Below, piece by piece: positions 22,048-58,824 of a stretch of 64,000 nt of DNA. The notes beneath the pieces are model-generated. The model saw nothing but the letters and a program-made list of their open reading frames with translations, was not told the DNA's origin and did not search any database. This stretch comes from Sanghuangporus weigelae. Its lineage: Eukaryota; Basidiomycota; Agaricomycetes; Hymenochaetales; Hymenochaetaceae. The first letter of the stretch is position 1; each line of letters begins with the position of its first letter. The translations under genes and the position numbers were made by a program. The stretch covers positions 1,550,001 to 1,614,000 of the forward strand of contig CP137329.1 of NCBI GenBank assembly GCA_033182465.1. The letters run 5' to 3'.

Positions 22048-23564
22048 TTAGACGATATTTCCCTATGTGACAAGAATAAATGACTTACGTCGCTGACGAA
22101 AGAGAAGCGCTTACCCTTTCTTGATCAGATGATGGACGGATATTGATATCAAACTGACAATCGATAGTCCTTAGACGTGGAGGAGAGAGCTTGGTTGTAT
22201 ATGGATCAGGATTTGGATGTATTTAGAGTAGTTGAAGGGCAGGACTTACTGTCTGGGAGTTATTCGCTGTAATCGGGTGGTCATTTTCGGTGACGGGAGG
22301 ACCAGTAAAATGGAGGCTCGTGCATCCCGCGTCTCCCACAAGTTTTTCTCGGAGACCAACTCTAGCGTTCAGACTGTAAATCGTGCTCAGTTGTCTAGAA
22401 TGTCTGATGGGAAAGCATTGAAACGGACGAAGCTAGCAAACAATTCAAGTATACTAAGGAAAAGAATCTCAGTGAAATATCCAGGGCAATGAATCAATTA
22501 ACTCACATTTCGGGAGAAGTAGATCAGGAAAGATGTAGACCAAGGAATTCGGTAGTAATTCTGAACCGATGAAGGCCGCCACTCCTATTACGCCAGTGAC
22601 CAATCCTGTTCCGACTGAGTATAATATAAGACGATGGAGGATAGAATCTGTTCTCTTCATTCCCACGCCGCGCTCCCGCAGTATATACACCATCACCGCA
22701 GCAATGAACGTATCCGTGATGACCCATGTAGCATTCATGGCCCTTTCAGTGGAGACGGTAGCAAAAAGTTGGGGTACAGAATTGAAACCAACTGCCTGGC
22801 CAGCGTAGGCCAACGTGATGCAGATTTGACCTATAACAGCGATGATCAGAGCTCCAGTCAGTATGCGACTTTTGTTGCTTACTGTGAAATAATAAATTCA
22901 GGAATACGTAAAAAGGGGACCATCATTCTAGACTCACAGCTCCATGCACGCATGACGAATACGCATTGCACCAAGGCATCAATAATGGCTGAACCCATCC
23001 CTATGTAAATGATTGTTCTGGATAAGTGTCAGGTCATCCGTTATGACCAATGAACAAGAGCGCATACTTATCGATGTGCAGGAGGTTGAGACTATTCCGG
23101 TAATCGGTGACGAGGTGCTTGTAGGTCGACTTAATTAAAAATCCTTGGTGAACGGTATCGAGGATCCAGATGATTAAGATGTACGGCTTAATCCAACGCT
23201 TGTCTTCGTCGATACTTGAGTTCTAGACGAGATTGTGAGCATCACTGTTAACCTAAGGCTCATAATTTCCACCTCGTAGTAGTAGTATAGCTGGATGCAA
23301 CCCATTCCCCATAGACTTATAAAGAACAAGACATCAAGTCAGTAGGTTACGTGTTAACCGGGAGCTAGGAGGCTTCTAACCACGTCGAAAAGCTAGGTAT
23401 CGGTCAGACAGAGACGGACGAATACAACGAAGTATACATACATTCCTGCTAGGAAGTAGACAGCCAACTAATATATATTTGTGAGATGATCCCAGCATTC
23501 GCAGCAGGAGGTAAGAAAGACTCGCCGTGTTCTCCAAGGAAAATGGAATGTTACTTGTTGCCAT
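22048..23564 (-). CDS. DUF6534-type multi-pass membrane protein, copy 1
   Basis: A fungal seven-helix membrane protein of unknown function. From ATG 23564, exon 1 gives MATSNIPFSLENT; it joins to LAVYFLAGM by a GC-AG intron, then come LWGMGCIQLYYYYE, IIWILDTVHQGFLIKSTYKH, MGSAIIDALVQCVFVMRAW, and the diagnostic last helices with GMKRTDSILHRLILYSVGTG, then SLNARVGLREKL. The last exons give RTIDCQFDINIRPSS and a stop near 22048. The order of segments matches copy 3 exon by exon, including the place of the first intron. DUF6534 proteins are common in Agaricomycetes and often clustered, as here. Function is not known. Confidence 0.8.
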
Positions 23565-24813
23565 TCCGTTCACTCTTTTGTCCCCAAGACAGTCTTCTGC
23601 GGATGGAACGAAATAGGTCCAGTATGGACTTGAGTTGACTTTACTAACCTTTCTTTGCATTTTATCTCTTGACGCTCCGCTGCATTTGTCATAGACTATA
23701 GCTAGCTGTGCACCATGAAGCAGATGAAGTGGAATAATCATACCGAAAAAAGCGTCGCCGCGTGGCTGGTTGCGTGCGACGAAGGCTGCGCTCCGATGTC
23801 GGAAGAAATGTCGGCGCATTACTTTTCCAGCATTGCCGGTACACAAGGCGGCATCCTAAAAGTGCAGCTAGGTAGATCTCACGAGATTGATGGATAGTTT
23901 GGCGCCTGAGTAGTTTACAGACTAAGAGTTTGTCCTTCTGGAAAAAAGCAGTGCCTATCACAGAAAACAGATATGAAAATGTCAGAAGCTCGACAGGATC
24001 CAAGGACGCGCTGCAGATCAGATCGCTAAGGTACATGGTTCCGTTTTTGGTAGACCAAACCGATGAGCTGAGATACCTGATTTTATTTGGTTTCTGGCTT
24101 CCCAACAATGACAAATTTCAAAGCAGTTTTCTGTCAAGAAATCGAGAGATCGGGTTATCGAATTGAGCAGGCCGCTGCCAGTACGGGTCTGGGGGTTGAA
24201 TCACGTAAGGAACTCCCGGTTTCTCACACATGCAGGCCAAAACTCATTCCCGAACCGTGAGAATGCTTCCCAGAATGGAAATGAGCCATTAAGGATGATG
24301 GCTTTCCCGTTATGATTAAAAATTTTCAAAGGGCTCGGAATAATTTTTGGTCCGCATGTACTTATCCCGACACCGACGTCGACACCAACGATGGCAACTA
24401 ACCTAGCCCGTATCAATCAATAAGAATGATTTCCATCGAAGCTTCGCGCAGCTCTAACCGCCTAAGTGACTTGCGTTGAGCAACCTCAGACAACAATGGT
24501 ACATTCATTCATGAGTTCGGTCTATGACCTCCTCTGCTGAAAGTTCCCATCTAGTGCTTGAGCGAAGAAATAGAAAATGCATTCGGGAAAACGAGCACAA
24601 GTATGACTATTTACTCTGTCGTGGTCGGAAATTGACCATCCTTTTATATATTGCGAGAAAAGAACTGCCATGACTCGGAATACCGACAATATATATCATA
24701 AAATGACCTACAGCTCGGAATCATGAACAACTTGGGAGCTTGCTGTTGACGTGATGAAATATAAACAGCTACATCTAGCTGTGATCGCGGAAATAGCGAC
24801 TCGAATGGTCTGG
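23565..24813. other. Intergenic region with a 31-base match to the start of the gene at 9312
   Basis: No supported gene. At 24381-24411, preceded by CCGAC repeats from 24367, the sequence matches 9302-9332 at about 27 of 31 positions, including the ATG of the mitochondrial protein gene. The match ends abruptly and no longer frame follows. The rest is featureless. Confidence 0.4.
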
Positions 24814-25600
24814 TCATTCAGCTGAGAATCCCGATCCTGCCTCTGTAGCGGGCATACGGAATCCTACTTCAAGATCCTAAAAACATTGGGATGATTTAAA
24901 GATTTATTGATATGCAACAGATATCTCACCTTTCTTTGGTCGGTATTGTATTCCACTTCAAGATCCACTCGGCATTCGATCGCCCTTGGAGTTGTATCCT
25001 GGCATGGATATAAGCTTTATGATTAAAGAAAGTGACACAAATTGAATTGTACTTTGTATAATGTTGTTGAACTTGCGGTAACGTTGGGACTTCTCGATGA
25101 GGTAGGGCCGATGTTTTCAAGATTAATGCTCATGCCACCACCTGCGCCGTTGCCTGCAGTTGTGAGCAAGCTTGATCGAACGTTCAAGCTTATGCCAGTA
25201 TTAGTACTCGAGAATAAATGGAGATCACAGACAACATACGAAACAAGCATGCAGTTGTAGTACACTGGAGAAGGATACGGCCTCAGCACAACGAGTCAAC
25301 TCAGAGAAGAAGTACGTACGTTTGGGAAACACCAGATCGATAAGAAAGTAGGCAAGTGATTTCGGCGTTGCTTCAGCAGCAATTAATGCAACGATTGAAA
25401 GGACGGCAGTTGCGAGTCCGGAACTCATGGTATACAGAACGAGACGATTTATCAGTGAATCAGTCCTTTTGAATCCAGAACGACTCCTCCACAGTAAAAC
25501 TATCAGGGAGGCAGCGACAGCCGTGTCTGTTAGGAACGTAAAGTAATTTATCGCTTTCTCCGTCACAATTAGTTGCGATAGTTGCTTTTGAGGCAGAAAC
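24814..25600 (-). pseudogene. DUF6534-type membrane protein, copy 2, 5'-truncated
   Basis: The C-terminal half of a DUF6534 gene: QLSQLIVTEKAINYF, LLWRSRSGFKRTDSLINRLV, SLNVRSSLLTTAG, then, across short introns, RAIECRVDLEVEYNTDQRK and a tail ending GFSAE-stop near 24814. Homology to copies 1 and 3 begins abruptly near 25600. The sequence upstream does not contain the first four membrane segments seen in the other copies. It is therefore a partial duplicate or decayed gene; a different fused 5' exon cannot be excluded. Confidence 0.7.
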
Positions 25601-26173
25601 CATGTACACTTGCTTAGTTTAATTCAGACATCTCAGGGATTCGAGATGGAACACGTAAAGCTGTCAGAATCAATTCGAAGCTCTTTTACCCGCAAGTGAT
25701 GAACGTGTTGACCATTACCCTACATCACGGTAAGGCGTGCCTCTTCTTCGAGTCCCTGGCACTAGAATCTTTTGAATAATGATAGCCCCACTTTGCGGCG
25801 GAGAGTCAGATGTCGCTGAGTGCATCTATATCGAACACGAGGACACGATGAACACGAAGCATTTGCATCGAACTTTGAATCATTACCGAAAAGATGATCA
25901 AGTTTGTCTAGAGGCTCCACACAGAAAGAGCAAGTTCACGTAAGTGTAGATTTCGTAACGTGCCTGGATGATGACCGGTTCAAAGCTTATTTTTAACCAG
26001 ATTACGAGCTCCTTCAATTCTCTAGGCAGTTACTGTGTAATCTCCAAAAAAATGCGTGGCTAGAAGGATGAATCGCTAGGCAGACGAGAATAAATAGCCC
26101 GTGCGATCTAAACAGGGAGAGAAAGGCTCATTGGAGACGCACTTCTGCCCATTCTCGATATAGGGTATTTACA
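25601..26173. other. Intergenic region between DUF6534 copies 2 and 3
   Basis: About 570 bases; it should hold the missing 5' part of copy 2 if present, but none was found on either strand. No repeat seen. Confidence 0.4.
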
Positions 26174-27651
26174 CTAATGTCCAATGCCAATTCGTGATCG
26201 ATATTGTACATCCTCCTGCTGAAAAAATCCGGACTCGATATCAATATCAATCCGGCATTCAATAGATCGCGGGCCCGAAATCTATCATGAGCCTAAGGTT
26301 TCCCGAAATGATGGAAAAGAAGCAGCAAAGCGCACCTTGTATGGATTGCCTGAAGAGTCGTTCGAATGTTCGACTGGCGTAGAGATGACTGTGTTGAAAT
26401 CGTCAAGGCGAAAACTCAGACCAACTGCGTCGCAATTCGGAGTGCTGCGAAGGCTTGATCGAACATTCAGACTGTATTTTCATAGTCAGCTCGTTATGCG
26501 GCTAAAAAAACCAAATAGCTGACGAAGCGAGCATGCAATTGAAATACACTTGAAGCTCGCAGTTAGCGATGTCGCTGAGTAGATTCTAGTAAGGGGGTCA
26601 CCCACATTTCGGAATCACTAAATCAACTAGTAGATAAATGACGGAGCGCGGTGAGACTTGTGCACCAATTGCAGCTACGATTGCCCAAACTGCCGGTACA
26701 AGGCCAGATCCGATGGTATACATGATAACTCTGTTCACAATTGAGTCCGTCCTTTTAACCCCAGATCGGGATCTATACAGGAGCCATACCAGGACGCCTG
26801 CGAGGAGTGCATCCGTGCAGACGACGATGTAGTTCATCGCAAGCTCCGTGTGAACGGCTTCTGTGAGCTGTGTAACTATAGTCGCACTGTAGATTTGACC
26901 GTAATATGCCGTAGTGATTGCGAACTGGACCAAGATGGCGATACATAGGACTGCAGTTATTGCCTTGTTTTTCTTGCTTACTTTGAGAAACGTCGGTTCG
27001 GGGCTGAAGAATGGCAGGACTTGCATTACTTACCATACCAAGCACGTCTGACAAAAATGGCTTGCACCATGGCGTCAATAAAAGCTGTGATAATCGCGCA
27101 GTGAATCGAAGATCTGTAGGAATGCTCAGTGGCTGCTAGTCGCGTTGAAAGCAATAGAACTTGCCTTGACACACGAAGTAATAATTCCGGTTGGATGATC
27201 CCCTTCACAAAATACACATAATTAAAATTCAGGAGGAGCGCTTGATGAGCTGTATCGAGTATCCATATGGAAAAGATGTAAGATTTGAACCATTTCCCAT
27301 CCGTATTCCAGTATTTCTTTTCAGGATATCAGCTGTGTGAATGTTTGAATGGGTCCGTAAACTTACTTCGCAATATAAATACAGTTGAAGACAACCGATG
27401 CCCCAAAAGCTGAGTGATGCTTAGTACCTGAATCCTTCGATAGATCATAATGAAGCATACACAGATGAGAATCTAGGTTATAGCAGTCAGCAATTAGAGA
27501 TGCATCTCGTAACGATAGAATGCTTACATGACTGCAAGAAACAAACAGCCGAACTGCATAAGAAGTCAGTCTAACGAGATAGAGGATAAGTACGTGGTAA
27601 GCGCACAGTACTATCCAGAAGGGAAGGGGGTATGATACTCGTGTCAACCAT
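26174..27651 (-). CDS. DUF6534-type multi-pass membrane protein, copy 3
   Basis: From ATG 27651, exon 1 gives MVDTSIIPPSLLDST; after a GT-AG intron FGCLFLAVM follows. Later exons give FWGIGCLQLYLYCE, IFSIWILDTAHQALLLNFNY, IDAMVQAIFVRRAW, KKNKAITAVLCIAILVQF, ELAMNYIVVCTDALLAG, the signature SRSGVKRTDSIVNRVIMYT and SLNVRSSLRSTP. The last exon gives SGPRSIECRIDIDIE and a stop near 26174. About seven membrane helices are implied. It looks intact and is the best-preserved of the three copies, all on the minus strand over 5.6 kb. Function unknown. Confidence 0.82.
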
Positions 27652-28410: not shown

Positions 28411-28703
28411 CTAGAAGCAGCAGGGAATGGGAATGATGTAGCAGCATCCTCCATTCTAGAGTGAATCAAATGAGTCGCGATCGCAGCACATTGATCGGAT
28501 AGAAGTAGACATACTGGACACGGGATGCAACCACCACGAAGACGCATTGCGCCCTGACTACTCTCGCTGCCATGCGCTGTTGTCATTGTCGAAGCTGGTG
28601 TCGGCTGTTTGTTCACCGGCTGACTTGCGTCGGGTGTTACCGAGTCAGTTCGTCGGACAGATTGAGATGTCGGAGGATAGATCGGAGTAGAATTTGAGGG
28701 CAT
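28411..28703 (-). CDS. RLRGG-motif small protein with Cys-rich tail, copy A
   Basis: Two exons: 28703-28515 (63 codons) and a second reached by a phase-0 GTATGT...CTCTAG intron, ending at TAG 28411-28413; 77 residues in all. The N-terminal 50 residues are polar and Pro/Ser/Thr-rich (contains TPASTMTTAHGSES), probably disordered. At 54-58 is RLRGG, identical to the end of ubiquitin, followed at once by Cys59 and CIPCP; exon 2 gives NGGCCYIIPIPCCF. The tail is short, hydrophobic and Cys-rich, fitting palmitoylation, metal binding or a membrane-associated tail. There is no signal peptide. A TATATAAG box lies about 80 bases upstream. The same layout recurs in copies B and C. Family not recognised. 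Confidence 0.75.
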
Positions 28704-29352
28704 GGTGAAGGGTATGGCACAATGCAGCACAAGAGAGAAATACGGGTTATGTTGACGACAAAGGATCGAGAGATGCACCTCTTATATACAAGCATGGTAA
28801 GCACCACACTGTGACATACGAGAAAAGCTGTTGACGTCACGATTATTAAAAAAAATCCCTCACGTGGTGATGCTGGTGATGGCTGCGAAATCGCCTGATC
28901 GGCGTGGGTCTTCCCACGATAGATCTCTGTTCCCTGCACTTAAACACCAAATCGAGTATACATTATCTCGTAATGAATCTTAGGCTTAGGTCTAAACTTT
29001 CAAAATAACGGTGCGTATATTTCTCAGTCCTTATTTTGGCTGAAAGATCGCATACTTAGACATCTCCTAAGCGGATATCTTCTCCCGAATCAGTTTCTAG
29101 TCTTGCTGCGGACTGATAGTCAGACTGTCCTGAAGGCTCGCTCGCAACGGAACACAGGAATCCGTCGTTGCACAGGTTGAACGGATGGCGGACGAACCGG
29201 CGAAATTCGAATCATCAAGCAAATCGTGAAGAGTCAAATGTATACTATATGTACAAAAGTGAGAATAGAAAGGACGGCGTCGGTTGATCGAGTGGATGCC
29301 GGGAATAAGCATCATCGACGCATTGTGATCGTCAATTCATCATCTAGTTGAA
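28704..29352. other. Spacer between RLRGG genes A and B
   Basis: About 650 bases. It contains the promoter of copy A; no further paralogue was found in either strand. Confidence 0.4.
28781..28790 (-). promoter_or_regulatory. TATA-like box of RLRGG gene A
   Basis: GTATATAAG on the minus strand about 80 bases before the start codon at 28703. Confidence 0.5.
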
Positions 29353-29645
29353 TCACGGAATGCAGCAACACCATCCTCCTCCCTGAATGCAGCCAAAAGG
29401 TAAGTTTATACACTGTTAAATCATCGACAGTGACTTACACCCGGCAGACAGGGACAGGGCCAGCAGCAGCACCCTCCTCTCAGACGTCTCGCAGTGTTTT
29501 CGTTCTCGCCACCGTGCGTTGTGGTCATAGTTGGAGAAGCAGTAGGCTGGGAAGTCACCATTGGGTTATTTCCGAGCTTTTCGACTGCGTCTCTCTCGTT
29601 TATCCGAGCTGCTGGCGGGAGAGTCGGAGTTGGGCTTGAGGACAT
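29353..29645 (-). CDS. RLRGG-motif small protein with Cys-rich tail, copy B
   Basis: Two exons: 29645-29439 (69 codons), then a phase-0 GTAAGT intron and an exon encoding GGGWCCCIP, stop TGA at 29353-29355; 78 residues. The N-terminal part matches A and C at PP, R/D and QPTASPTMTTTHGGE. RLRGG is again at residues 54-58 and is followed by CCCWPCPCLPG, so the cysteine-rich part starts in exon 1 and continues in exon 2. The intron falls at the same place in the motif layout as in A and C. A TTTAAATA-type TATA element is about 90 bases upstream (29731-29740). No signal peptide. Confidence 0.75.
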
Positions 29646-29730
29646 AGCTGATCTCGGTGGCGACTGAAATGCTTGACCGTGGCGGATAACAGCTTCAGGG
29701 AAAGACAGCAGACGGAGCGCAGCATTACTG

Positions 29731-29740
29731 CGTATTTAAA
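29731..29740 (-). promoter_or_regulatory. TATA-like box of RLRGG gene B
   Basis: TTTAAATACG on the minus strand, about 90 bases before the start codon at 29645. Confidence 0.45.
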
Positions 29741-30067
29741 GCAACCCTTGTACAGCGTCGCCACATATCTCCCCGGGTCTGCATAGCCTAACCAAGAAAA
29801 ACGACCTTCACCCGGATAGGCTACACTTCAACGTTCCGCTTGCAAAGTCGGATGCTTACAAATGCCAACTGCATGATGAACAGAAAGAGGACGCCACTAG
29901 TCCGAGGGTTCAGAAGCTGCTCTGAAGATGCTTAGTTCGTCACTTCGTGGCCTTCTTTTTTGCGTCACTCACACAAGAATACAGACCTTTATCAGCCTTT
30001 GGATAGACTATACAATCGGTAATGTTCTGAAAGAGTCGCCAGAATTCTTATAACTTGACTGTAGATA

Positions 30068-30277
30068 CAGGTGGGTACAAAAAGTCTTTGGCCCCCCTGT
30101 TTTAGGAAGGTGATTTGCATGCCTTCTCGGGAAACGAACGCCCGTGAAGCGAGGTCCCCTCATCTTTGCCGACATTGAGCAAGTCGGCGAGGTTGTATCC
30201 GACGCTTACAGTACCATACATAGTATGCAAATCCTCCTTCCATAAGCAGGGGGCCAAAGACTTTTTGTACCCACCTG
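30068..30277. mobile_element. TA-flanked terminal-inverted-repeat element, 210 bp
   Basis: The ends are inverted repeats starting CAGGTGGGTACAAAAAGTCT and continuing for about 30 near-perfect bases, with weaker pairing to about 55. Each end abuts TA (30066-30067 and 30278-30279). The CAG start and TA target suggest a Tc1/mariner-derived MITE. It sits between RLRGG genes B and C. No coding capacity. Confidence 0.75.
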
Positions 30278-30542
30278 TAAGTGAGTATAGTACTATCTGT
30301 TCTTTTTCTTGAAATTCATGATTATTCCAAATGCACAAATAAGGTAGAGCATGGCTGAAAAGCGCCACCGCAATACAACAGATATCGATGAAGCGAATTA
30401 TAGCAGTCATCAGGATGAGAGCCGTCACAAGAGCAGTACGAAGCTCAGTATCCAGTGCCTTTAATGAATACTCGCTACTCCTGCCTGGGTATACGCCACT
30501 ACGCCACTATTCCAAGGCATCTTCAGGCAGGGTGCAGAAGCG

Positions 30543-30838
30543 TCAACAAGGGCATAGGCACGGGATGCAGCAACAACAACGAATTTTCTGGGATTCATTG
30601 CAGAATGAGATGTTTGTTACAAGTCGATGTCACGAAGGCGTGAACTCACAGGGACGGTACAACACCCTCCACGCAGACGCATCGCGGCATTCCTACCTTC
30701 TCCGCCTCGAGCTGTTGACATCGTTGGAGAAACAGTGGGCTGAGTTTGCACTATGAAGCTCGTTTCAAGATCATTCGAACCATCTCGTCGGTCGACTCGA
30801 GCGGAAGGGGGATATGTTGTCATCGAATTAATAGTCAT
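30543..30838 (-). CDS. RLRGG-motif small protein with Cys-rich tail, copy C
   Basis: Two exons: 30838-30650 (63 codons), a phase-0 GTGAGT intron ending CCCAG, then KIRCCCCIPCLCPC and TGA at 30543-30545; 77 residues. It shares YPPSARVDRRD, QPTVSPTMSTARGGE and AMRLRGGCC with the other copies; RLRGG is at 54-58. The tail holds six cysteines in exon 2. An internal ATG at residue 6 is an alternative start. A TTTTAAATA element lies about 70 bases upstream (30905-30915). The three copies are in tandem on the minus strand over 2.4 kb. Confidence 0.75.
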
Positions 30839-30915: not shown

Positions 30916-31055
30916 CATCTGCCATAGACTGCGCCGGAGTAGTTTATCATATTGTTTAACGTCAGCCTGAATTCGGGGTACTTGACACATTTGAAATGCG
31001 TAAATTAAATGATCGAACAGCATTCTGAGCTACTAGTACGGGCCCAAGAAAATCA

Positions 31056-32206
31056 TCAATTAATATTGTCTTTGATCACAGCCTCCGCCCGTGCTGCGGT
31101 CCGCTGCGCCTTCTTCTCCATTTCAATCTTTAGCTTCTCGGCACATCTCATCTTCTTGACAATGAGCGTGCATATCTTGCACAGCGACGCTCGAGGCGCA
31201 ACATTTTCGTCTATTTTCCCACTTGGTGTTTTCTTGCCTTTGTTCTTCGTGGTCAACTCGTAAGGAAAGTGACGCTCGGGTATCGTGCGCCCACATCCCG
31301 AACATTCTTTGCTTGACGCTGGAGCGCGAACATCGTCTGTAGAGTTTATTTCCAAAGAAACTGACAGCGGGAGAAATGGACCTCTGAGATAGATATTCTC
31401 CGGATCGGGTTTACCCGTTTTGTAGTGCATGGAAACATAGCATGACGAGAGATCGAGCAATTGCTCCCTTTGCTTCAAATAACCGTGTTCGACGAAATGG
31501 TCGTATAGTTTTGCAATGCGTTTGATATCGCTGGCTGCATAATCAAGAAGTTGGTCCGAAAGAGGACGCTGCATCCATATCTCGGATAGATTGTCTGTGT
31601 GAAGCTTTTTGACAGATTCTGCGTGTATCCAATAGCCATGCTTGAGTAAAACTCGAGGATAGTCAGTAGTTTCAGGCACTTCTTACCGTTTTTCATCTCA
31701 ACGCCATCTATTTTATGTTCCCTCATTGCGCCATCCATCCCATTCAGGACGTATACTTCTTCGAGCTGGAGCTTTCGGACTTCAGACATCGAGAACGTCT
31801 TCCTCACGAATCGGCATAACCGTTTGTGCTCCGTCTCCCCGCGATTAGTTCGAGAAATAACGTCCACGAGTTGAAGATCCAAGACGTTTTCGATCGGGCA
31901 GCTATAACTGTAGAAAAGCTCGACGTAGTCCATGCGTCCATCCCAGACAACTTTAGTTTTGGCGCGCGCGGAGGATGTAAGCGAGAATATGGAATAGAAG
32001 AGTAGCTGGAGCGAATCTCGCGGGAGGGCCAAGACGTCAAATAGGTAGACCTCAGCTGCGTGGGGGGATCCGATAGATATCAAGGACAGCGCTCCGGGTG
32101 CGCAGCCAAGATCACGCCCTTCGCAATCCAGGAAGACGTATTCTGCATCCAGAAGGTTTTCGAGAGCCAGAGATACGGATTCAGCTGTTGTACAAAGTGT
32201 GAACAT
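31056..32206 (-). CDS. DEDDy-type 3'-5' exonuclease with C-terminal Cys4 domain, copy A
   Basis: Two exons, 32206-31687 and 31651-31056 (phase 1, GTAAGA donor), give 371 residues. The N-terminal domain has the DEDDy pattern: FLDCEG (Asp27, Glu29) in ExoI, VLDLQLVD in ExoII, and YAASDIKRI (Tyr and last Asp) in ExoIII, with WMQRPLSDQLLD just before it. This is the fold of WRN-exo, RNase D and Egalitarian/EXD1; the substrate is not predictable here. The C-terminal domain has CSGCGRTIPERHFP and, about 40 residues later, LCKICTLIVKK, a likely CxxC...CxxC zinc site. The ATG at 32206 was preferred over an upstream TTG because the paralogue at 46330 begins at the same place. The end is Lys/Arg-rich. 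Confidence 0.82.
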
Positions 32207-32558
32207 CTCGTCCTTTTGAACGAAGGTTGAGCTCAAGTACTAACAAGAGCAGAAGATTGATAGGAGATACTCAAGCTAAGCGGTTAGACGCTGGCTCGGT
32301 TTTCCCAGGAAGAAGCTGCAATCTCGTGAACATCAAAAATTCTTTCCGATTCATCTAGATTGCTCCAAAATAATAGCCAAAGAGAAGCTCAACAGAAGAC
32401 GATTGGACGGTGTCGCTCGAGAGTCTATGCACATACTCCGGTTCAGGACTTGAGTTGGTAACCGGGACCGGAGAAGCTGTCTGAGTGACGTAAGCAAGGT
32501 CCTTCGCGGAATAAATTAAACTAGTAACTCTAGGAAAGTAACGAGATACAAACAGACA

Positions 32559-45910: not shown

Positions 45911-46329
45911 TAATGATGCGACTCTGAACTCAACTATCGCGTCGTGGTGCTTGCGGTATACAAGTCTTAGAGTTAAAAAATGACTTCGTCAATACTTCAA
46001 GCCATCCTTGATCTTATGGGTCCTTGATCTTATGGGTATATGTGGCGAGTCAAAGCGCCACCAACCCAGCCCGTGCTTTATGTGGCTGGCAATTGGCCTA
46101 AGCTCCGATTTCTACAAAACCATCCAGTCTGTTCATGGAATCCGCAGAATTTTCCTGACACGTCCCAGATAGACACCTCGGCTGCATTAAGCTACGCATG
46201 TTCTCCACGTGTATCAGGAACTCCAGACTGTCAATTCAGTCTAGGATGCCCGACTTACTCTTTCGACGAAATAGCGAGATGCGTAGTCTCGCTACCTCAG
46301 CTGGCATTCCTCGATCCTCTGCATCTCGA

Positions 46330-47381
46330 ATGTTTATATGCGATAATCCTGACTCAGTCTCACGGGCTCGCGACTTTCTGAAGGAAGCGCCCTATGTGCT
46401 ATTTGATTGCGAGGGGCATAACATAAAAATGCCTGATGGATCTGAAAGTGTCTCGCTGGTGCAGTTGGGTGCGCCCCATGCGGATGATGTCTTTGTCTTC
46501 GACATGCTTGCCCTTCAGAAGAGTCGGCGCGCTACGAAAAACATACTTTCCCTGATATGTAACCCGACGATCCTCAAAGTGGGATGGGGAGGAGTAGAGG
46601 ATTTCTCTACGTTGGCTCGGATTTATAAAACATCCATTACGCCGTTTCTCGATTTGCAACTTGTCGATATTCACTCGCGCATTCGTCGCGGCGAGTCACG
46701 TCAGGTTCAAATATCTCGTCTTGCCAGTAAGTTTTCCCCGAATCTGCCGTCGCAAAGCTGCAGATTGATGGTGTCCACAAGCTAAGTAGAATGGATCAAG
46801 CGTTGGTTGAACATGGCTTGCTCAATGTATCCAAGAAGGAAAGTGAGTAAGATCTTCAAGTTGCGAAGCCAATTTTATCCTCATCCCTTCTAGATCACAG
46901 AGGAAGCTGGTCCGAACGGCCTCTGGTCAATTCTGACATCCGCTATTCCGCAAACGATATTGTTCGCATCTCCGAACTACATGACTACTTCAAGCACTGC
47001 AGGATCCTTTCCGCGAAACTCCTTGCGGACGTGATCGCCCAGACGGCGCTGTACATGGAGTTATACGGACCGACAGGAATTTTGAATTTCCGAAAGCGAT
47101 TCATACCTTCCAACATTCTACCTCTCGATATCATCAGCATCTCTATCAGCAGAAGAAGTTTCTTCACGAGGAATAGGGACTTGGGAAAGTGCACAGGCTG
47201 CCATCGTGCTCTGTCTCGCGAAAGTTTTCCGCTGTCAGACATACACAGTGGGACGGATGGGAAACGATTGCCACTATGCAAGGCATGTATATTCCTCGTG
47301 AAGAAAGAGAAATACGTACTGCGGAATGCTGCGCAGACGGCAAAGAGGTTCGTAGAGAGTCTCTTGAAAGTGAATTACTGA
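46330..47381 (+). CDS. DEDDy-type 3'-5' exonuclease with C-terminal Cys4 domain, copy B; apparent frame change
   Basis: Paralogue of the gene at 31056-32206. From ATG 46330: MFICDNPDSV, VLFDCEG (Asp26, Glu28), SLVQLGAPHADDVFVFDMLA, FLDLQLVDIHSRIRRGES; later KLQIDGVHKLSRMDQALVEH, WSERPL, YSANDIVRI, and in the last exon CTGCHRALSRESFP and LCKACIFLVKK. A GTGAGT donor after 46843 and a CTAG acceptor before 46894 join well. However, around 46727-46742 the homologous frame shifts by one base at a T/C homopolymer; no intron there keeps homology. This is a frameshift, a sequence error, or a species-specific splice form. An earlier ATG at 46198 would add an Arg/Ser-rich, presequence-like extension. 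Confidence 0.7.
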
Positions 47382-52208: not shown

Positions 52209-55200
52209 TTGACAACCCTGCGAAGAAAACATATTCGGATTTGACGTTCGTCGACACGACGCACGTATATACCAGAACATACAAGTTCACCGAATTTTGG
52301 AAATACGACAACAATATTTTCGATACCGATTTTATCAAACACAGTCCAAGTCGCATCGAAGTCATAACAACATGGACGAAATTCAGACTCGACCCGCGCG
52401 TCCTACATACCGAGAAACTGGTAAAAGTCTGGCTGCTCAATATCCTCACAACCGACCAGACTGGGCGCAGGTGGTTGGAAAGAGAGATGCGGCAACACAG
52501 GTTACAACGAGGTATAGCACGCAGAGACAACGAATAGAATATTCAATGTCATGTTCAAAATTTTACCATTATGCTCCTCCACGATTCTACAAACAACGAC
52601 CATTACGCATTGTAAGAAACATAAAAATGAATACAATTGCCGTTACAGAATTAAGGAATAGATATCTTTATGAACATGTACCACATTCAGACGATGAGGA
52701 AACTTATTGCGAAGTAATAAGACAAGAATTACCTAGACAATCTGCGAGCGGACCTTCGGGTACTACATTAACAAATTTGCCACAAGAAATGGAGATAATA
52801 CCTCAGAATATGGAGTCAACGCAAACTCAAGAGCCCCGAACTGAACAAGATGAAGATGAAGAAAATGAAAATGATAATAATTCAAATAATAGTGAGCAAA
52901 CAAGAGCTAGTTCACACCCAACGCATATAAGTGCACCTCGAACTTCATCCCAAAGTCCACATACACCACCTCCAAGCCCTTCAAGTCCATCTAGCTCATC
53001 ATCTTCATCAATGGCTACTCGAGTTTTTCACATCGCTGGCTTAGACCTCAGGGACCTGTTTAAGGCCTTTGATGGCGTCGAGAAACTTCAGCACAACGGA
53101 TCGAATTTCAAAATGTGGCTTATTTGCGTCGAGGCAACCATGCTCGCATTAGGACTCGAAGATCACCTCATTGCGAGCCCGCCAGCTAATGACACCGATG
53201 GCCAAACCACGAACAACCAACTCATCTCCGTTTTTCAATCGAAAGTACCTGATTCCATTCTTTCCAATATGATCGGTATCAACCGCGTCATACTATTTAT
53301 AAACCATCTCAAAACGAGGTTTGACGTTAGAACTACGGTTACTTCCGCGGTCGAAGTATCGAAGCTTTTCAATATACGTGGACACGTTTCCGAATTCGAT
53401 AAAACCTTAGATAAGTTACAAAATATCTATGGTTTACTCACGCAACACAATAAGAAGCCGACAGACGATACATATTTATCTGCGATACAAACTTCTACGC
53501 CACCGCAGTACGGCTATGTGTTCCAACAATTACAAGCGAGGATCGATTTTTATAATTCAACTCTCACCGCCAATCAACCATGCAGAACCGTAACCCCTGA
53601 CGGCTTAATCGCCGAACTGCGTGCGGCTTTTGCAAATTACCAGGCGCAGAAGCAACCATCAGCTACCCCAAGTACCTTTCGGGGGAGAGCAACATCATCA
53701 CGAGGACGAATCTTTTCTTATCGATCGCATTTTAACCGAGGAATGAATAGAAACCCGAGTTACCTGCAACATGCAAATCCAAACTATCCCGGATCTACTA
53801 CACAATTTTGGAAAGGTCCTTGGGATAATCGAAACTATTTTCGAGGACGTGGTAGAGGCTGATCAAACTTTACCTATAAACATTTTACACCTCACACGCA
53901 TGCAGTCACAGGAGCACCGCAATGCTTCAATTGCAAAAAGTTCGGACACATGTCGAAAGACTGCCGTGCTCCACCGACTCCACAAACCTTGAAGATACGT
54001 CAATCTCGTCCCAATTCTACTGCGACTGCTTCTTTGATTACACAAGTGTCGACGAACTATACAAATCCGAATGCGGCCGCTCAGGCAATTATCCCCTCTT
54101 ACACGCTACCACCATCTAATACTACTCATATCGAAGAAGTCAACATGGCCAGTATGCGCTCGAAAACACCCGTTCTCCCTTCGGAATCAAACTTCACAGT
54201 TAATACTCCTTCACCGATGACTCTTGATCTTTCGGATGACGAGAACCCGAAATTAAAACGAACTCGAGAATGGACAAACGCAACGAACCCCTTCGAACGA
54301 CCCGTGAAACGTCAACAGACGATCGCTACCCAACTTGCTGCCGAATCATCATCCGGCACTAATTTTGTCGATGATTTTTGGGAACAAATGACGATGCAAC
54401 AAGACCCTAACGACGACGGTGTCCTTCTCAAAGGAAAATCTCTTTTCAACCTTATTGATCACGACGAACCAGTCCCATCTTTCGCGAACAACGCTGCAGA
54501 CCAAGACTTTATTGAAGAACATGGTTATCACCCGATGCACCTTAATCCTCCAACGAAGGAACAAATGGATGAATATGCAGCAATAATGTCTAAACGCGAA
54601 GGCAAAAGACGCGAAAAAGAAATCAATATTATTGAAAGAGCAATACCTGATGACGTGCCAATGGAATACGTCCAATCAGTAAGTCATACAATGGCATTAT
54701 TAGATTCAGGAGCTAGCATTCATGTTACTCCTTATCAAAAAATTTTAATGAACCTTACTAATTGCGAACCAATTATAGTGCGAACCGCCGACAACACCGC
54801 CATCACTGTTTCTCAAAAAGGCGACATGAAAATTTTATTATTCAAAGTCAATAACAATTTTGTAACACCCGAAAATTGCACTATAATAAAACTATCAAAT
54901 ATTTATTATTCGCCGAAATTTAAATGCACGCTAATATCATTAGCTGAAATGTGTGATCAAGGATTTAAATTTATTACTGAACAAGATATTTGCATCGTAA
55001 TGAAAAATAACAGACATCTTGGAACTATACAATGATCATATAAAAAATTATACGAAGTACACACGTATAATGATCCAGAAATGCGACCAAATATTATAGC
55101 ATCATTAACAATCGATGAATTACATAAGAAATTAGGCCATATAAGCTACGGTTACATACGAAAAATGATTAAAGACCATCCAGAAATAATAACTGAGAAA

Positions 55201-55541
55201 ATCATAGACGACAATACAAACAAAAATTGTATTGATTGCACTAGAGCTAATATATCACGAACAATAATTCCACATCAAAGAAAATCACCATTAGCAAATA
55301 ACTTTGGTGATTTAGTACATATGGATATTTGGGGACCGGCACCAACATTAGCATTAAATTCAATATCATACTTACTCACATTGGTCGATGATTCAACAAG
55401 ATGGTCAGAAATGCTACCGTTAAAACACAAAAGTGATGCCTACACGGAATATATTAAATATACAACTCGATTAAAATTACAAAATGGTACAATAATTAAA
55501 ATTCTTCAATCGGATAACAATGCTGTATTTTTATCTAAAGA

Positions 55542-56577
55542 TGGTGATAGGCAACGGTCATGCAACTCGCGATCGTTCCCACTATGCCGCTTATAGGAAA
55601 TCCTGTCGGAGCTTCAAAAAAACTTGACAAGAATTTCAGAAGAGAATGTGTAGGCTTACACAACATCATGTAGACCATATCAAGGCGTGAAATATATGTA
55701 TTTGACTACTTGGAACACTTGTCCGGAAGTAGAATTTCTTTAAATGCAAAAATCAGCAGAATTTAGCATTAAAAAGGTATAAAGTGTACAAAAATGTGTC
55801 TTTACAATGAAATTTTTGACATTTTGTTCCCGGGTAATTGAAGGAATACATATGAAAAAGAAGTGTATGCAGAAAAAATAACACTATAATCTGTGTCAAT
55901 TGTCAAAACATTCGAAGAGAAAGAAGTCGATCGGTACCTTGAAATAGCAAAACTTGATCATGTGATGCATTAGAAGCTGATTGACCGGACCTACTGAAAG
56001 CTTGCTCAAGTGATCAAATGAGTTTTGATAAAGTAGATGAAGCATAGACGTACCTGAACTCTCTAAATGAACATATATTTTGTATATGGGCAACTTGATT
56101 TATACTATATTGCATTTTCGAGCAATATTGAAGAAGTTTACAAAGGAATTGATATCTGTGAGTTCTGTACTGAGATACCATAAGAATTGGAATAAAAAGC
56201 CCTCAGAAGCATAGAATCACACAGTATAATTATCCCTGAGAGAAAGGAAGCCAAATCTGACAGTTTAAGAGCAAGAGTAATCATGCAAAGTCTGTGACCA
56301 ACAGTTTAACCAGTCTGCATATGAGTTATCCAAAAACTAATTAGCTGAGCTTAGGTCCCAAAAGTTCTGACAGCAGGAATATCAGGATCAGACACCAATC
56401 AAATGCTATGACAAGAATTCTGAGTGATTGACGCGGTGCTTCAATTTCTGACACGATGTGTACGAAGGAGAGACCCTTTGTAAACTACAGATTACATGTC
56501 TTGCTAGTTATGGTAAGTTTTCAAACTCCGCCCGAAATTTATGGGATCGCGTGTTACATGACCATTGCCGATCACCA
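55542..56577. mobile_element. Nested terminal-inverted-repeat element inside the copia integrase region, 1036 bp
   Basis: The ends are imperfect inverted repeats of about 33 bases that begin TGGTGATAGGCAACGGTCAT (left) and TGGTGATCGGCAATGGTCAT (right, reverse strand). Both sides carry the 7-bp duplication CTAAAGA (55535-55541 and 56578-56584). The interior is AT-rich and has no transposase-like frame, so it is non-autonomous. It must be younger than the copia insertion. Superfamily not assigned; 7-bp duplications are unusual. Confidence 0.85.
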
Positions 56578-58824
56578 CTAAAGACTTTACTGATTACCTT
56601 GATTCACAAGGAACTATCAAAAAATTAACTGTTCATGACACGCCACAGCAAAACGGAGTTGCCGAGAGAATGCATCAAACTATTTTTAATCACGTCAGAT
56701 CTATGTTAACAGCAAAAAATTTACCACAACAATTATGGTATTATGCTGCACAACATGCACTATTTATTACCAATCGATCACCAAAAAGTGCTATAAACTT
56801 TGAAACACCATTCAAAAAACGTTTTAATGCAAATTATATACTAAATGGTCTCCAAGAATTTGGACATGACGTTATATACAGAAAAGAAAACACAAATAAA
56901 TTACAAAATAAAGGTGCAATTGGAAAATTTGTCGGATATGATTCAAATACAAAAGATGGCATATATGTCTATCATGATTCCAAAGTATCAACAGAAAGAA
57001 ATGTAGAGTTCATCATTTCTAACGAAATTCGAACTCAGGGGGAGATAACAACACAACCCGATAATAATAACGATATCAACAATCAAACATCATTAAAAGA
57101 AAGATTACAAAGACACCGTGAACCATCTCGTAAGAAAAGAGAAGCAGGTCTAGCGATCGAAAAACAGGAAGATATTTCTATATTCTTAACGGAATTTAAC
57201 AATGAAATAAATAAAAGTATGAAAATACCAATAACATACTTAGATGCGTTAAGAAGACCTGATCATGATAAATGGCGACAAGCCATGAAAAATGAAATAG
57301 ATTCATTAATAGAACATAACACATGGATATATGAATACCCACCACCGAACACAAATATAGTGGGATGCAGATTTGTCTACAACATAAAATATAAAGCAGA
57401 CTCTACCATCGAAAAATATAAAGCACGACTAGTAGCGCAAGGTTTTAGTCAAATCGATGGAATAGATCATTATTCACAAGACACTTTTGCACCCGTCGCA
57501 AAGCTATCAACAGCTAGATTACTATTACATTGGGCAGTGGCAAATGATTATGAAATACATCAAATCGATGTAAAATCTGCTTATTTATACGGAGAATTAA
57601 ATGAAGATGAAATCATCTACATGCGTCCACCACCAGGAAATTTTTGTAAAGATATTAAACCTGGTCAAGCGTTAAGGTTAAAAAAGGCCTTATATGGATT
57701 AAAACAATCAGGAAGAAGATGGTATAAGAAAATAAATGATATACTTAATGCAGCAGGATTAACAAGATCTGCTGAAGATTACGCAGTATTCTATGATAAA
57801 TCGATATTCAAACCGAACTTAATAACATTCATGCATGTGGATGATATAACTATAATAAGTCAAAATATTGACATAAAAAATAATTTAGTTACGAAGATAC
57901 GAAAATTCGTTAATTTAACAGATAATGGTGAGATCCATTGGTTATTAGGAATCGAAATGAAGAGAAACCGTCACAATCGAACAATACTATTAAGACAAAA
58001 GAAATATATCGAAGACATAACACTTAGATTTAATATTGAAACTGAAAGATTACGCCAAACTCCAATGGCGCCAGGCAGTAGATTAAAATCAAGCGACAAT
58101 ATGAGTTCACAGGAAACTAAATCATTATTCATGAGTTTAGTCGGATCACTCCGATACGCTGCGGATGCCACTAGGCCCGATGTAGCCTATGTTGCAGGAC
58201 AATTAGCAAGACATTTACATAATCCTGATGAAACACACATTAATGTTGCGAGATATGCTTTATCATATTTAAATACAACCAAAAACAAATGGTTAAAACT
58301 TGGAGGCAAATATCCGCTAATAATAGATGGATATTGTGATTCAGATGGTGTGGTAACAGAAGGCTATAAAGCTATTAATGGATATATATTTACAATAAGA
58401 AATTCATCGTTTTCGTGGTCATCAAAAAGACAAGATTTGGTACCTGCATCAGTATATGAAGCAGAAATTCAAGCATTACAACATGCTACCAAAGAAGCTA
58501 TCTGGATTAAACATTTTATCGAAGAGTTAAATATAAAAGAAAGTGATAGATTAATTACGATTTATTCGGATAACGAAGCGGCCATAAGAGATGTTCAAAT
58601 TGATGAATTTTCACATAATATCAGAACAAAACATTTAGATAGGCAAAGAGCCTTCGTACACTGTTATATCGAAAATCATTCAATTACAGTCAATTATGTA
58701 CCAACTACAAATCAACGTGCAGACACGTTAACAAAAGCGCTTAACACTAAACAGTTCAATCACTTAAATTCGTTAATCAGACTTGTTGACAGTTAAACAA
58801 TCTAATCATTCAGAAATTATTAGA

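What the first reader, a model, noticed from the sequence alone, without database searches (positions are those of the whole stretch)
28411..30838. Tandem family of three small proteins with an internal ubiquitin-like RLRGG tail and a Cys-rich C-terminus
Seen: three minus-strand genes encode 77, 78 and 77 residues. In each, RLRGG falls at residues 54-58, is followed at once by Cys, and a phase-0 intron leads to a short tail with clustered cysteines (NGGCCYIIPIPCCF, GGGWCCCIP, KIRCCCCIPCLCPC). The N-terminal half keeps QPTxSPTM and an A-x-GGE-like part. Known: RLRGG is the end of ubiquitin, where deubiquitinases cut and E1 binds. Inference: these may be precursors cut after GG to release a Cys-rich tail, or short ubiquitin-tail mimics; the N-terminal half is too short and polar for a ubiquitin fold. 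I do not know this family.
Basis: partly seen in the sequence, partly recalled or inferred. Interest (0 to 1): 0.78.

Follow-up and report, generated by a model that had tools for sequence, protein, structure and literature searches.

The report
Three small fungal cysteine-tail proteins
Three neighbouring genes, probably from a mushroom-type fungus, make small proteins with a short piece identical to the end of ubiquitin just before a cysteine-packed tail; they are real related genes, most likely membrane-attached by that tail rather than relatives of ubiquitin.

Summary
Three minus-strand genes at 28411-30838 encode 77, 78 and 77 residues, each with RLRGG at 54-58, then Cys59, then a phase-0 intron and a Cys-rich end. 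Kinship is clear even without the motif (0 of 2000 shuffles in each of 3 pairs), and RLRGGC is unchanged as protein while synonymous sites are near saturation in exon 1. The introns are supported: of 697 donor-like sites in the window, 8 lead to a short second exon with 3 or more Cys, and 3 of those 8 are these genes.

The ubiquitin reading is weak. The 53 residues before the motif are polar and Cys-free; a model of A, aligned with C only, shows no confident fold (pLDDT 52.6); Pfam found nothing for all three. My best reading is a disordered cytosolic head held at a membrane by an S-acylated Cys tail, with RLRGG as a basic hinge; it resembles CYSTM proteins in layout but fails tested features of that family. 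Metal binding is the main rival. One bold reading survives: ZUFSP-type deubiquitinases cut bare RLRGG peptides (PMC5824887, passages). No fungal sequence collection was on hand, so conservation beyond these paralogues is untested.

The parts
30650..30838 (-). gene A exon 1: residues 1-63, ends ...AMRLRGGCCTVP
30588..30649 (-). gene A intron, 62 nt, GTGAGT...CAG, phase 0
30543..30587 (-). gene A exon 2: KIRCCCCIPCLCPC and stop
29439..29645 (-). gene B exon 1: residues 1-69, ends ...ARRLRGGCCCWPCPCLPG
29383..29438 (-). gene B intron, 56 nt, GTAAGT...CAG, phase 0
29353..29382 (-). gene B exon 2: GGGWCCCIP and stop
28515..28703 (-). gene C exon 1: residues 1-63, ends ...AMRLRGGCIPCP
28456..28514 (-). 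gene C intron, 59 nt, GTATGT...TAG, phase 0
28411..28455 (-). gene C exon 2: NGGCCYIIPIPCCF and stop
28782..28788 (-). TATA-like box of gene C (TATATAA, starting 85 nt before the ATG); those of A and B (TTTAAATA) start 74 and 95 nt before their ATG
   Evidence: consensus match only

Best explanation
Shown: three paralogous genes encode small proteins with a polar, Cys-free head of 53 residues, the invariant RLRGGC, and a fairly hydrophobic tail of 19-20 residues with 6-9 Cys and no acidic residue. Inferred: the head is a disordered cytosolic segment; the tail is S-acylated (palmitoylated) on several Cys and holds the protein at the cytosolic face of a membrane, with the two arginines of RLRGG acting as a flexible basic hinge against acidic lipids and as a context for the acyltransferase. 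The likely role is an accessory membrane or stress peptide, working in the manner of CYSTM proteins without being a member of that family.
For: No hydrophobic stretch in the first 38 residues (best 19-residue mean -0.32 to -0.80), so no sign of a signal peptide; TATA-like boxes 74-95 nt before each ATG leave little room for an upstream exon. Tails have mean hydropathy 1.35, 0.93 and 1.25 and 9, 8 and 6 Cys. Cys number and spacing differ between the paralogues while RLRGGC and the hydrophobic Cys-rich character stay, which suits a tolerant lipid-anchor substrate better than a fixed metal or disulfide site. Selection keeps the protein: in exon 1 dN is 0.44-0.51 with dS 1.78, 1.90 or saturated, and RLRGGC is unchanged as protein despite 2-4 synonymous changes per pair. 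The AlphaFold2 model of A has no residue at pLDDT 70 or above and no helix.
Against: Palmitoylation was not tested and no predictor was run. No family match supports it. The tails do not reach the usual transmembrane hydropathy of about 1.6 (threshold recalled). Anchoring by acylation does not explain why the hinge should be exactly RLRGG. The model rests on two sequences, so its lack of fold is weak evidence. The TATA-like boxes are consensus matches only; no transcript data were available.
Confidence: 0.5

Rival explanations
1. Metal-binding (metallothionein-like) small proteins: the Cys-rich tail binds copper, zinc or cadmium and the head is a solubilising or targeting segment.
For: 6-9 Cys in 19-20 residues; CC in all 3, CxC in A and B, runs of 3-4 in A and B.
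Against: Cys spacing is not conserved between the three paralogues; no Pfam family matched; the aliphatic, aromatic and proline residues between the Cys are atypical of metallothioneins (recalled).
Confidence: 0.2
2. Ubiquitin-tail precursor: a protease cuts after RLRGG and frees the Cys-rich tail, or frees the head from the membrane; the likeliest enzyme would be a ZUFSP-type deubiquitinase.
For: RLRGG is exact in 3 of 3 and followed by Cys; ZUFSP and Mug105 are reported highly active on RLRGG-AMC, a bare peptide (PMC5824887, passages; also the abstract and passages of PMC8776766).
Against: No ubiquitin-like sequence and no confident fold; USP21, given there as a typical DUB, does not cut this peptide; whether the host has a ZUFSP enzyme was not searched, as its genome is not held; the motif stands out only moderately among the conserved columns.
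Confidence: 0.07
3. Peptide ligand precursors: a tandem set of small genes beside three candidate seven-helix receptor genes (DUF6534), by analogy with pheromone precursors beside STE3 receptors.
For: Three ORFs matching DUF6534 above its cut-off lie at 22.5-27.0 kb, beside the cluster on the same strand; DUF6534 proteins have been proposed as a new GPCR class, with consensus predictions confined to Agaricomycotina (PMC12842992, passages).
Against: No shared CaaX end: the last four residues are LCPC, CCIP and PCCF, with Cys at the right place in 1 of 3; no sign of a signal peptide (a-factor-type pheromones lack one too, recalled); no STE3 match in the 30 ORFs scanned of 165; DUF6534 is a large family (3893 sequences in that paper's largest cluster), so adjacency may be chance.
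Confidence: 0.07
4. Secreted Cys-rich protein or effector with disulfide bonds.
For: Small and Cys-rich.
Against: No hydrophobic N-terminus in 3 of 3; runs of CCC and CCCC and unconserved spacing do not suit a fixed disulfide pattern.
Confidence: 0.05

Closest known systems
CYSTM (cysteine-rich transmembrane module) proteins, e.g. yeast YDR034W-B and YBR056W-A/MNC1 (PMC10217909)
   Same: Small; Cys-rich C-terminus, with consecutive Cys (runs of 3-4 in A and B).
   Different: No acidic residue in the tail, Pro and/or Gly within it, hydropathy below that usual for a transmembrane helix, no Pfam match.
Ubiquitin and ubiquitin-like precursors
   Same: RLRGG followed by a short extension.
   Different: No ubiquitin-like sequence or confident fold; 53 residues before the motif against 71 in ubiquitin (recalled).
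Fungal metallothioneins
   Same: Dense Cys with CC and, in A and B, CxC.
   Different: Spacing not conserved, hydrophobic and aromatic residues, 53-residue Cys-free head. Features of metallothioneins are recalled.
PLAC8 / plant cadmium resistance proteins
   Same: The gene A tail holds CCIPCLCPC, which fits the CCxxxxCPC motif as I recall it.
   Different: Not in B or C (B has CCCWPCPC, one residue shorter); no PLAC8 match in Pfam.
Basidiomycete mating pheromone precursors
   Same: Short tandem genes near seven-helix receptor candidates.
   Different: Cys at -4 in only 1 of 3; no STE3 gene in the 30 ORFs scanned.

Membership tests
CYSTM | C-terminal transmembrane helix with 5-6 Cys (PMC10217909, part 1 of 4 read) | tested here: not met
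   6-9 Cys are present, but the best 19-residue hydropathy is 1.06-1.35 with Pro and/or Gly inside, and the low-confidence model of A has no helix
CYSTM | acidic residue after the Cys (same source) | tested here: not met
   0 acidic residues in 3 of 3 tails
CYSTM | 3-4 consecutive Cys (same source) | tested here: inconclusive
   CCCC in A, CCC twice in B, only CC in C
CYSTM | match to a Pfam model of the family | tested here: not met
   0 Pfam families at E up to 10 for 3 of 3 proteins; the tool's filters drop most weak matches
Ubiquitin-like precursor | beta-grasp fold before the GG | tested here: inconclusive
   model of A from A and C: pLDDT 52.6, pTM 0.13, only two short strands, both after the motif, but alignment depth 2; no sequence match
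Ubiquitin-like precursor | GG followed by an extension | tested here: met
   RLRGG then a 19-20 residue extension in 3 of 3
Ubiquitin-like precursor | cleavage after GG and conjugation | not testable with these tools
   needs protein work
Metallothionein | conserved Cys spacing | tested here: not met
   Cys positions in the tails differ in all 3
Metallothionein | metal binding | not testable with these tools
   needs protein work
Basidiomycete pheromone precursor | C-terminal CaaX box | tested here: not met
   ends LCPC, CCIP, PCCF: Cys at -4 in 1 of 3
Basidiomycete pheromone precursor | adjacent STE3 receptor gene | tested here: inconclusive
   no STE3 match in 30 of 165 ORFs of 90 aa or more; DUF6534 instead
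PLAC8 | PLAC8 domain by profile | tested here: not met
   0 Pfam families

The most novel reading that the evidence does not exclude
These are fold-free RLRGG substrates: a ZUFSP-type fungal deubiquitinase cuts after GG, detaching a cytosolic head from its lipid-anchored Cys tail, so that a ubiquitin enzyme acts as a release switch on proteins that are not ubiquitin.
Probability: 0.06. Interest if true: 0.85.

Novelty: new variant of a known kind. Interest (0 to 1): 0.4.

Why it matters
A small-protein family with no Pfam match, easily missed in annotation because about half or more of each Cys tail sits in a second exon of 30-45 nt, adds to the little-known set of Cys-tailed fungal proteins. 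If RLRGG is cut in vivo, it would give ZUFSP-type enzymes, whose activity on the bare RLRGG peptide was reported as surprising (PMC5824887, passages), a natural substrate other than ubiquitin.

Tried and rejected
Relatives: protein scans of viral contigs and of the prokaryotic genome contigs gave 0 relatives in 5 of 5 scans. Neither collection is meant to hold fungi, so this says nothing about conservation in fungi. The window's own genome is not held. Paper searches for RLRGGC, MRLRGG and RGGC-type strings (4 papers, all listed; 52 papers, 20 listed) showed no title that looks relevant; none of these was opened. Shared promoter blocks: local alignments of the 400 nt upstream are no better than shuffles (32, 91 and 198 of 200 shuffles reach the score). 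CRE-like TGACGTTA (A, -126) and TGACGTCA (C, -136) start 52 and 51 nt before the TATA-like box in 2 of 3 genes; not tested against chance and not used. N-myristoylation is rejected (no Gly2 in 3 of 3). A fold search with the model was not run because the model is of low confidence. The original CYSTM paper is not held; its features are taken from PMC10217909. The first intron control (0 of 2000) was weak, because only about a quarter of such random sequences hold any donor (468 of 2000); it was replaced by the controls.

Full report
Observation. The minus strand of 28411-30838 was read and the three gene models rebuilt by script. Gene A: 30838-30650 and 30587-30543, 77 aa. Gene B: 29645-29439 and 29382-29353, 78 aa. 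Gene C: 28703-28515 and 28455-28411, 77 aa. Introns of 62, 56 and 59 nt start GTGAGT, GTAAGT, GTATGT and end CAG, CAG, TAG, all in phase 0. RLRGG is at residues 54-58 in 3 of 3, followed by Cys59. Two sub-claims need softening: QPTxSPTM is in 2 of 3, and the Cys-rich region begins in exon 1.

Is it more than chance? RLRGG appears 3 times in six frames of the window, all 3 in these genes and all 3 followed by Cys, against a mean of 0.4 (RLRGG) and 0.03 (RLRGGC) in 30 Markov sequences. Pairwise protein scores of 179, 154 and 146 compare with a maximum of 61 over 2000 shuffles per pair, and the part before the motif alone beats 2000 of 2000 shuffles in 3 of 3 pairs. Identity of B and C to A is 50 and 45%. 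In exon 1, dN is 0.44-0.51 while dS is 1.78, 1.90 or saturated, so the proteins are under constraint; RLRGGC has no amino-acid change despite 2-4 synonymous changes per pair. The single non-synonymous step counted for each pair with B is a counting-path effect of AGA against CGT. A run of 6 or more invariant columns arises in 457 of 20000 column shuffles, so the motif stands out only moderately among the conserved columns.

Introns. I listed every donor of the form GT[AG]NGN within 45 nt of the motif and every AG making an intron of 42-92 nt, keeping readings that end in a stop. The stated intron is the only such option for A and the most Cys-rich of 3 (B) and 2 (C) options. A first control gave 0 of 2000 random sequences with a tail of 25 aa or less and 6 or more Cys, but only about a quarter of such sequences hold a donor (468 of 2000). 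Better controls: with the donor fixed, 16 of 5000 random downstream sequences give any second-exon peptide of 14 aa or less with 3 or more Cys, and 2 of 5000 with 4 or more. Of 697 donor-like sites on both strands of the real window, 8 give 3 or more Cys, and 3 of these 8 are genes A, B and C; 2 give 4 or more, both from this family (A and C). Unspliced, A and B read 10 and 5 residues past the exon border with 0 and 1 Cys, and C runs on to 118 aa. A 20-nt stretch of the second exons of A and B is 90% identical. No transcripts were available.

Anatomy. The heads are 53 residues in 3 of 3, with no Cys, 51-64% P/S/T/N/Q/G, net charge 0, -1 and 0, and no hydrophobic stretch. The tails are 19, 20 and 19 residues with 9, 8 and 6 Cys, no acidic residue and mean hydropathy 1.35, 0.93 and 1.25. 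Cys spacing differs in all 3. TATA-like boxes start 74, 95 and 85 nt before the ATG of A, B and C, which argues against a missed upstream signal-peptide exon but rests on consensus matches. A structure model of A, made from A and C only, has mean pLDDT 52.6, pTM 0.13, no helix and two short strands at 59-62 and 67-70; with two sequences this is weak evidence.

Surroundings. Of 165 stop-to-stop ORFs of 90 aa or more, 30 were scanned against Pfam. Near the cluster are thymidylate synthase (32.6-33.7 kb), a CDC20/Fizzy WD40 protein (34.4-35.6 kb), a 3'-5' exonuclease-like ORF upstream of gene A (just below the curated cut-off) and three DUF6534 pieces (22.5-22.9, 25.2-25.6, 26.6-27.0 kb). DUF6534 is a seven-helix family proposed as a GPCR class; the 767 consensus predictions of that paper were all in Agaricomycotina (PMC12842992, passages). 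The window is thus probably from a mushroom-type basidiomycete; the species was not determined.

What it is. No Pfam family at E up to 10 for 3 of 3 proteins, no PDB chain for protein C (A and B were not searched there), no relatives in viral or prokaryotic contigs. The best-supported reading is a disordered cytosolic head on an S-acylated Cys tail with a basic RLRGG hinge (0.5). The acylation, the location and the stress role are inference. CYSTM proteins are alike in layout, but membership fails on the acidic residue, the transmembrane helix and the Pfam match. Metal binding is the chief rival (0.2).

The ubiquitin question. PMC5824887 (passages) reports that typical DUBs do not cut RLRGG-AMC because they need an intact ubiquitin (shown there for USP21), while human ZUFSP and fission yeast Mug105 are highly active on it (KM 50.4 and 12.2 uM). 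PMC8776766 (passages) describes acidic residues of Mug105, Asp-89 and Glu-109, that correspond to the ones facing the R-x-R motif in ZUP1; mutants were tested on RLRGG-AMC, but the outcome was not in the passages that I saw. An exposed RLRGG in a disordered protein is therefore a plausible in vitro substrate of this enzyme class. Whether the host has such an enzyme is unknown. I give cleavage in vivo about 0.06-0.07.

Limits. Three paralogues from one window cannot show that RLRGG is kept across species, and no fungal sequence collection was on hand. In the titles and abstract openings listed I saw no such family, but listings were capped, most subscription papers are not held, and only four papers were opened: PMC10217909 (part 1 of 4), PMC8776766, PMC5824887 and PMC12842992 (passages).

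Noticed in passing
30066-30279: Palindromic element between genes A and B: 55-nt inverted arms, 84% complementary, 104 nt apart, with TA at both outer ends; looks like a Tc1/mariner-type MITE (my inference). A 24-nt piece of the arm, with up to 3 mismatches, occurs nowhere else in the window.
   Followed up: partly
22472-27029: Three DUF6534 (candidate seven-helix receptor) gene pieces on the minus strand beside the cluster.
   Followed up: partly
31478-32239 and 46159-46782: Two ORFs matching the 3'-5' exonuclease domain PF01612, the first just below the curated cut-off, the second above it.
   Followed up: no
53863-58793: Copia-type retrotransposon pieces: zinc knuckle, Pol_BBD, SH3-like and RVT_2 domains.
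   Followed up: no
28832-28839 and 30957-30964: CRE-like TGACGTCA (gene C) and TGACGTTA (gene A), starting 51 and 52 nt before the TATA-like box; in the 600 nt upstream gene B has only TGACG at -322 and -297.
   Followed up: partly
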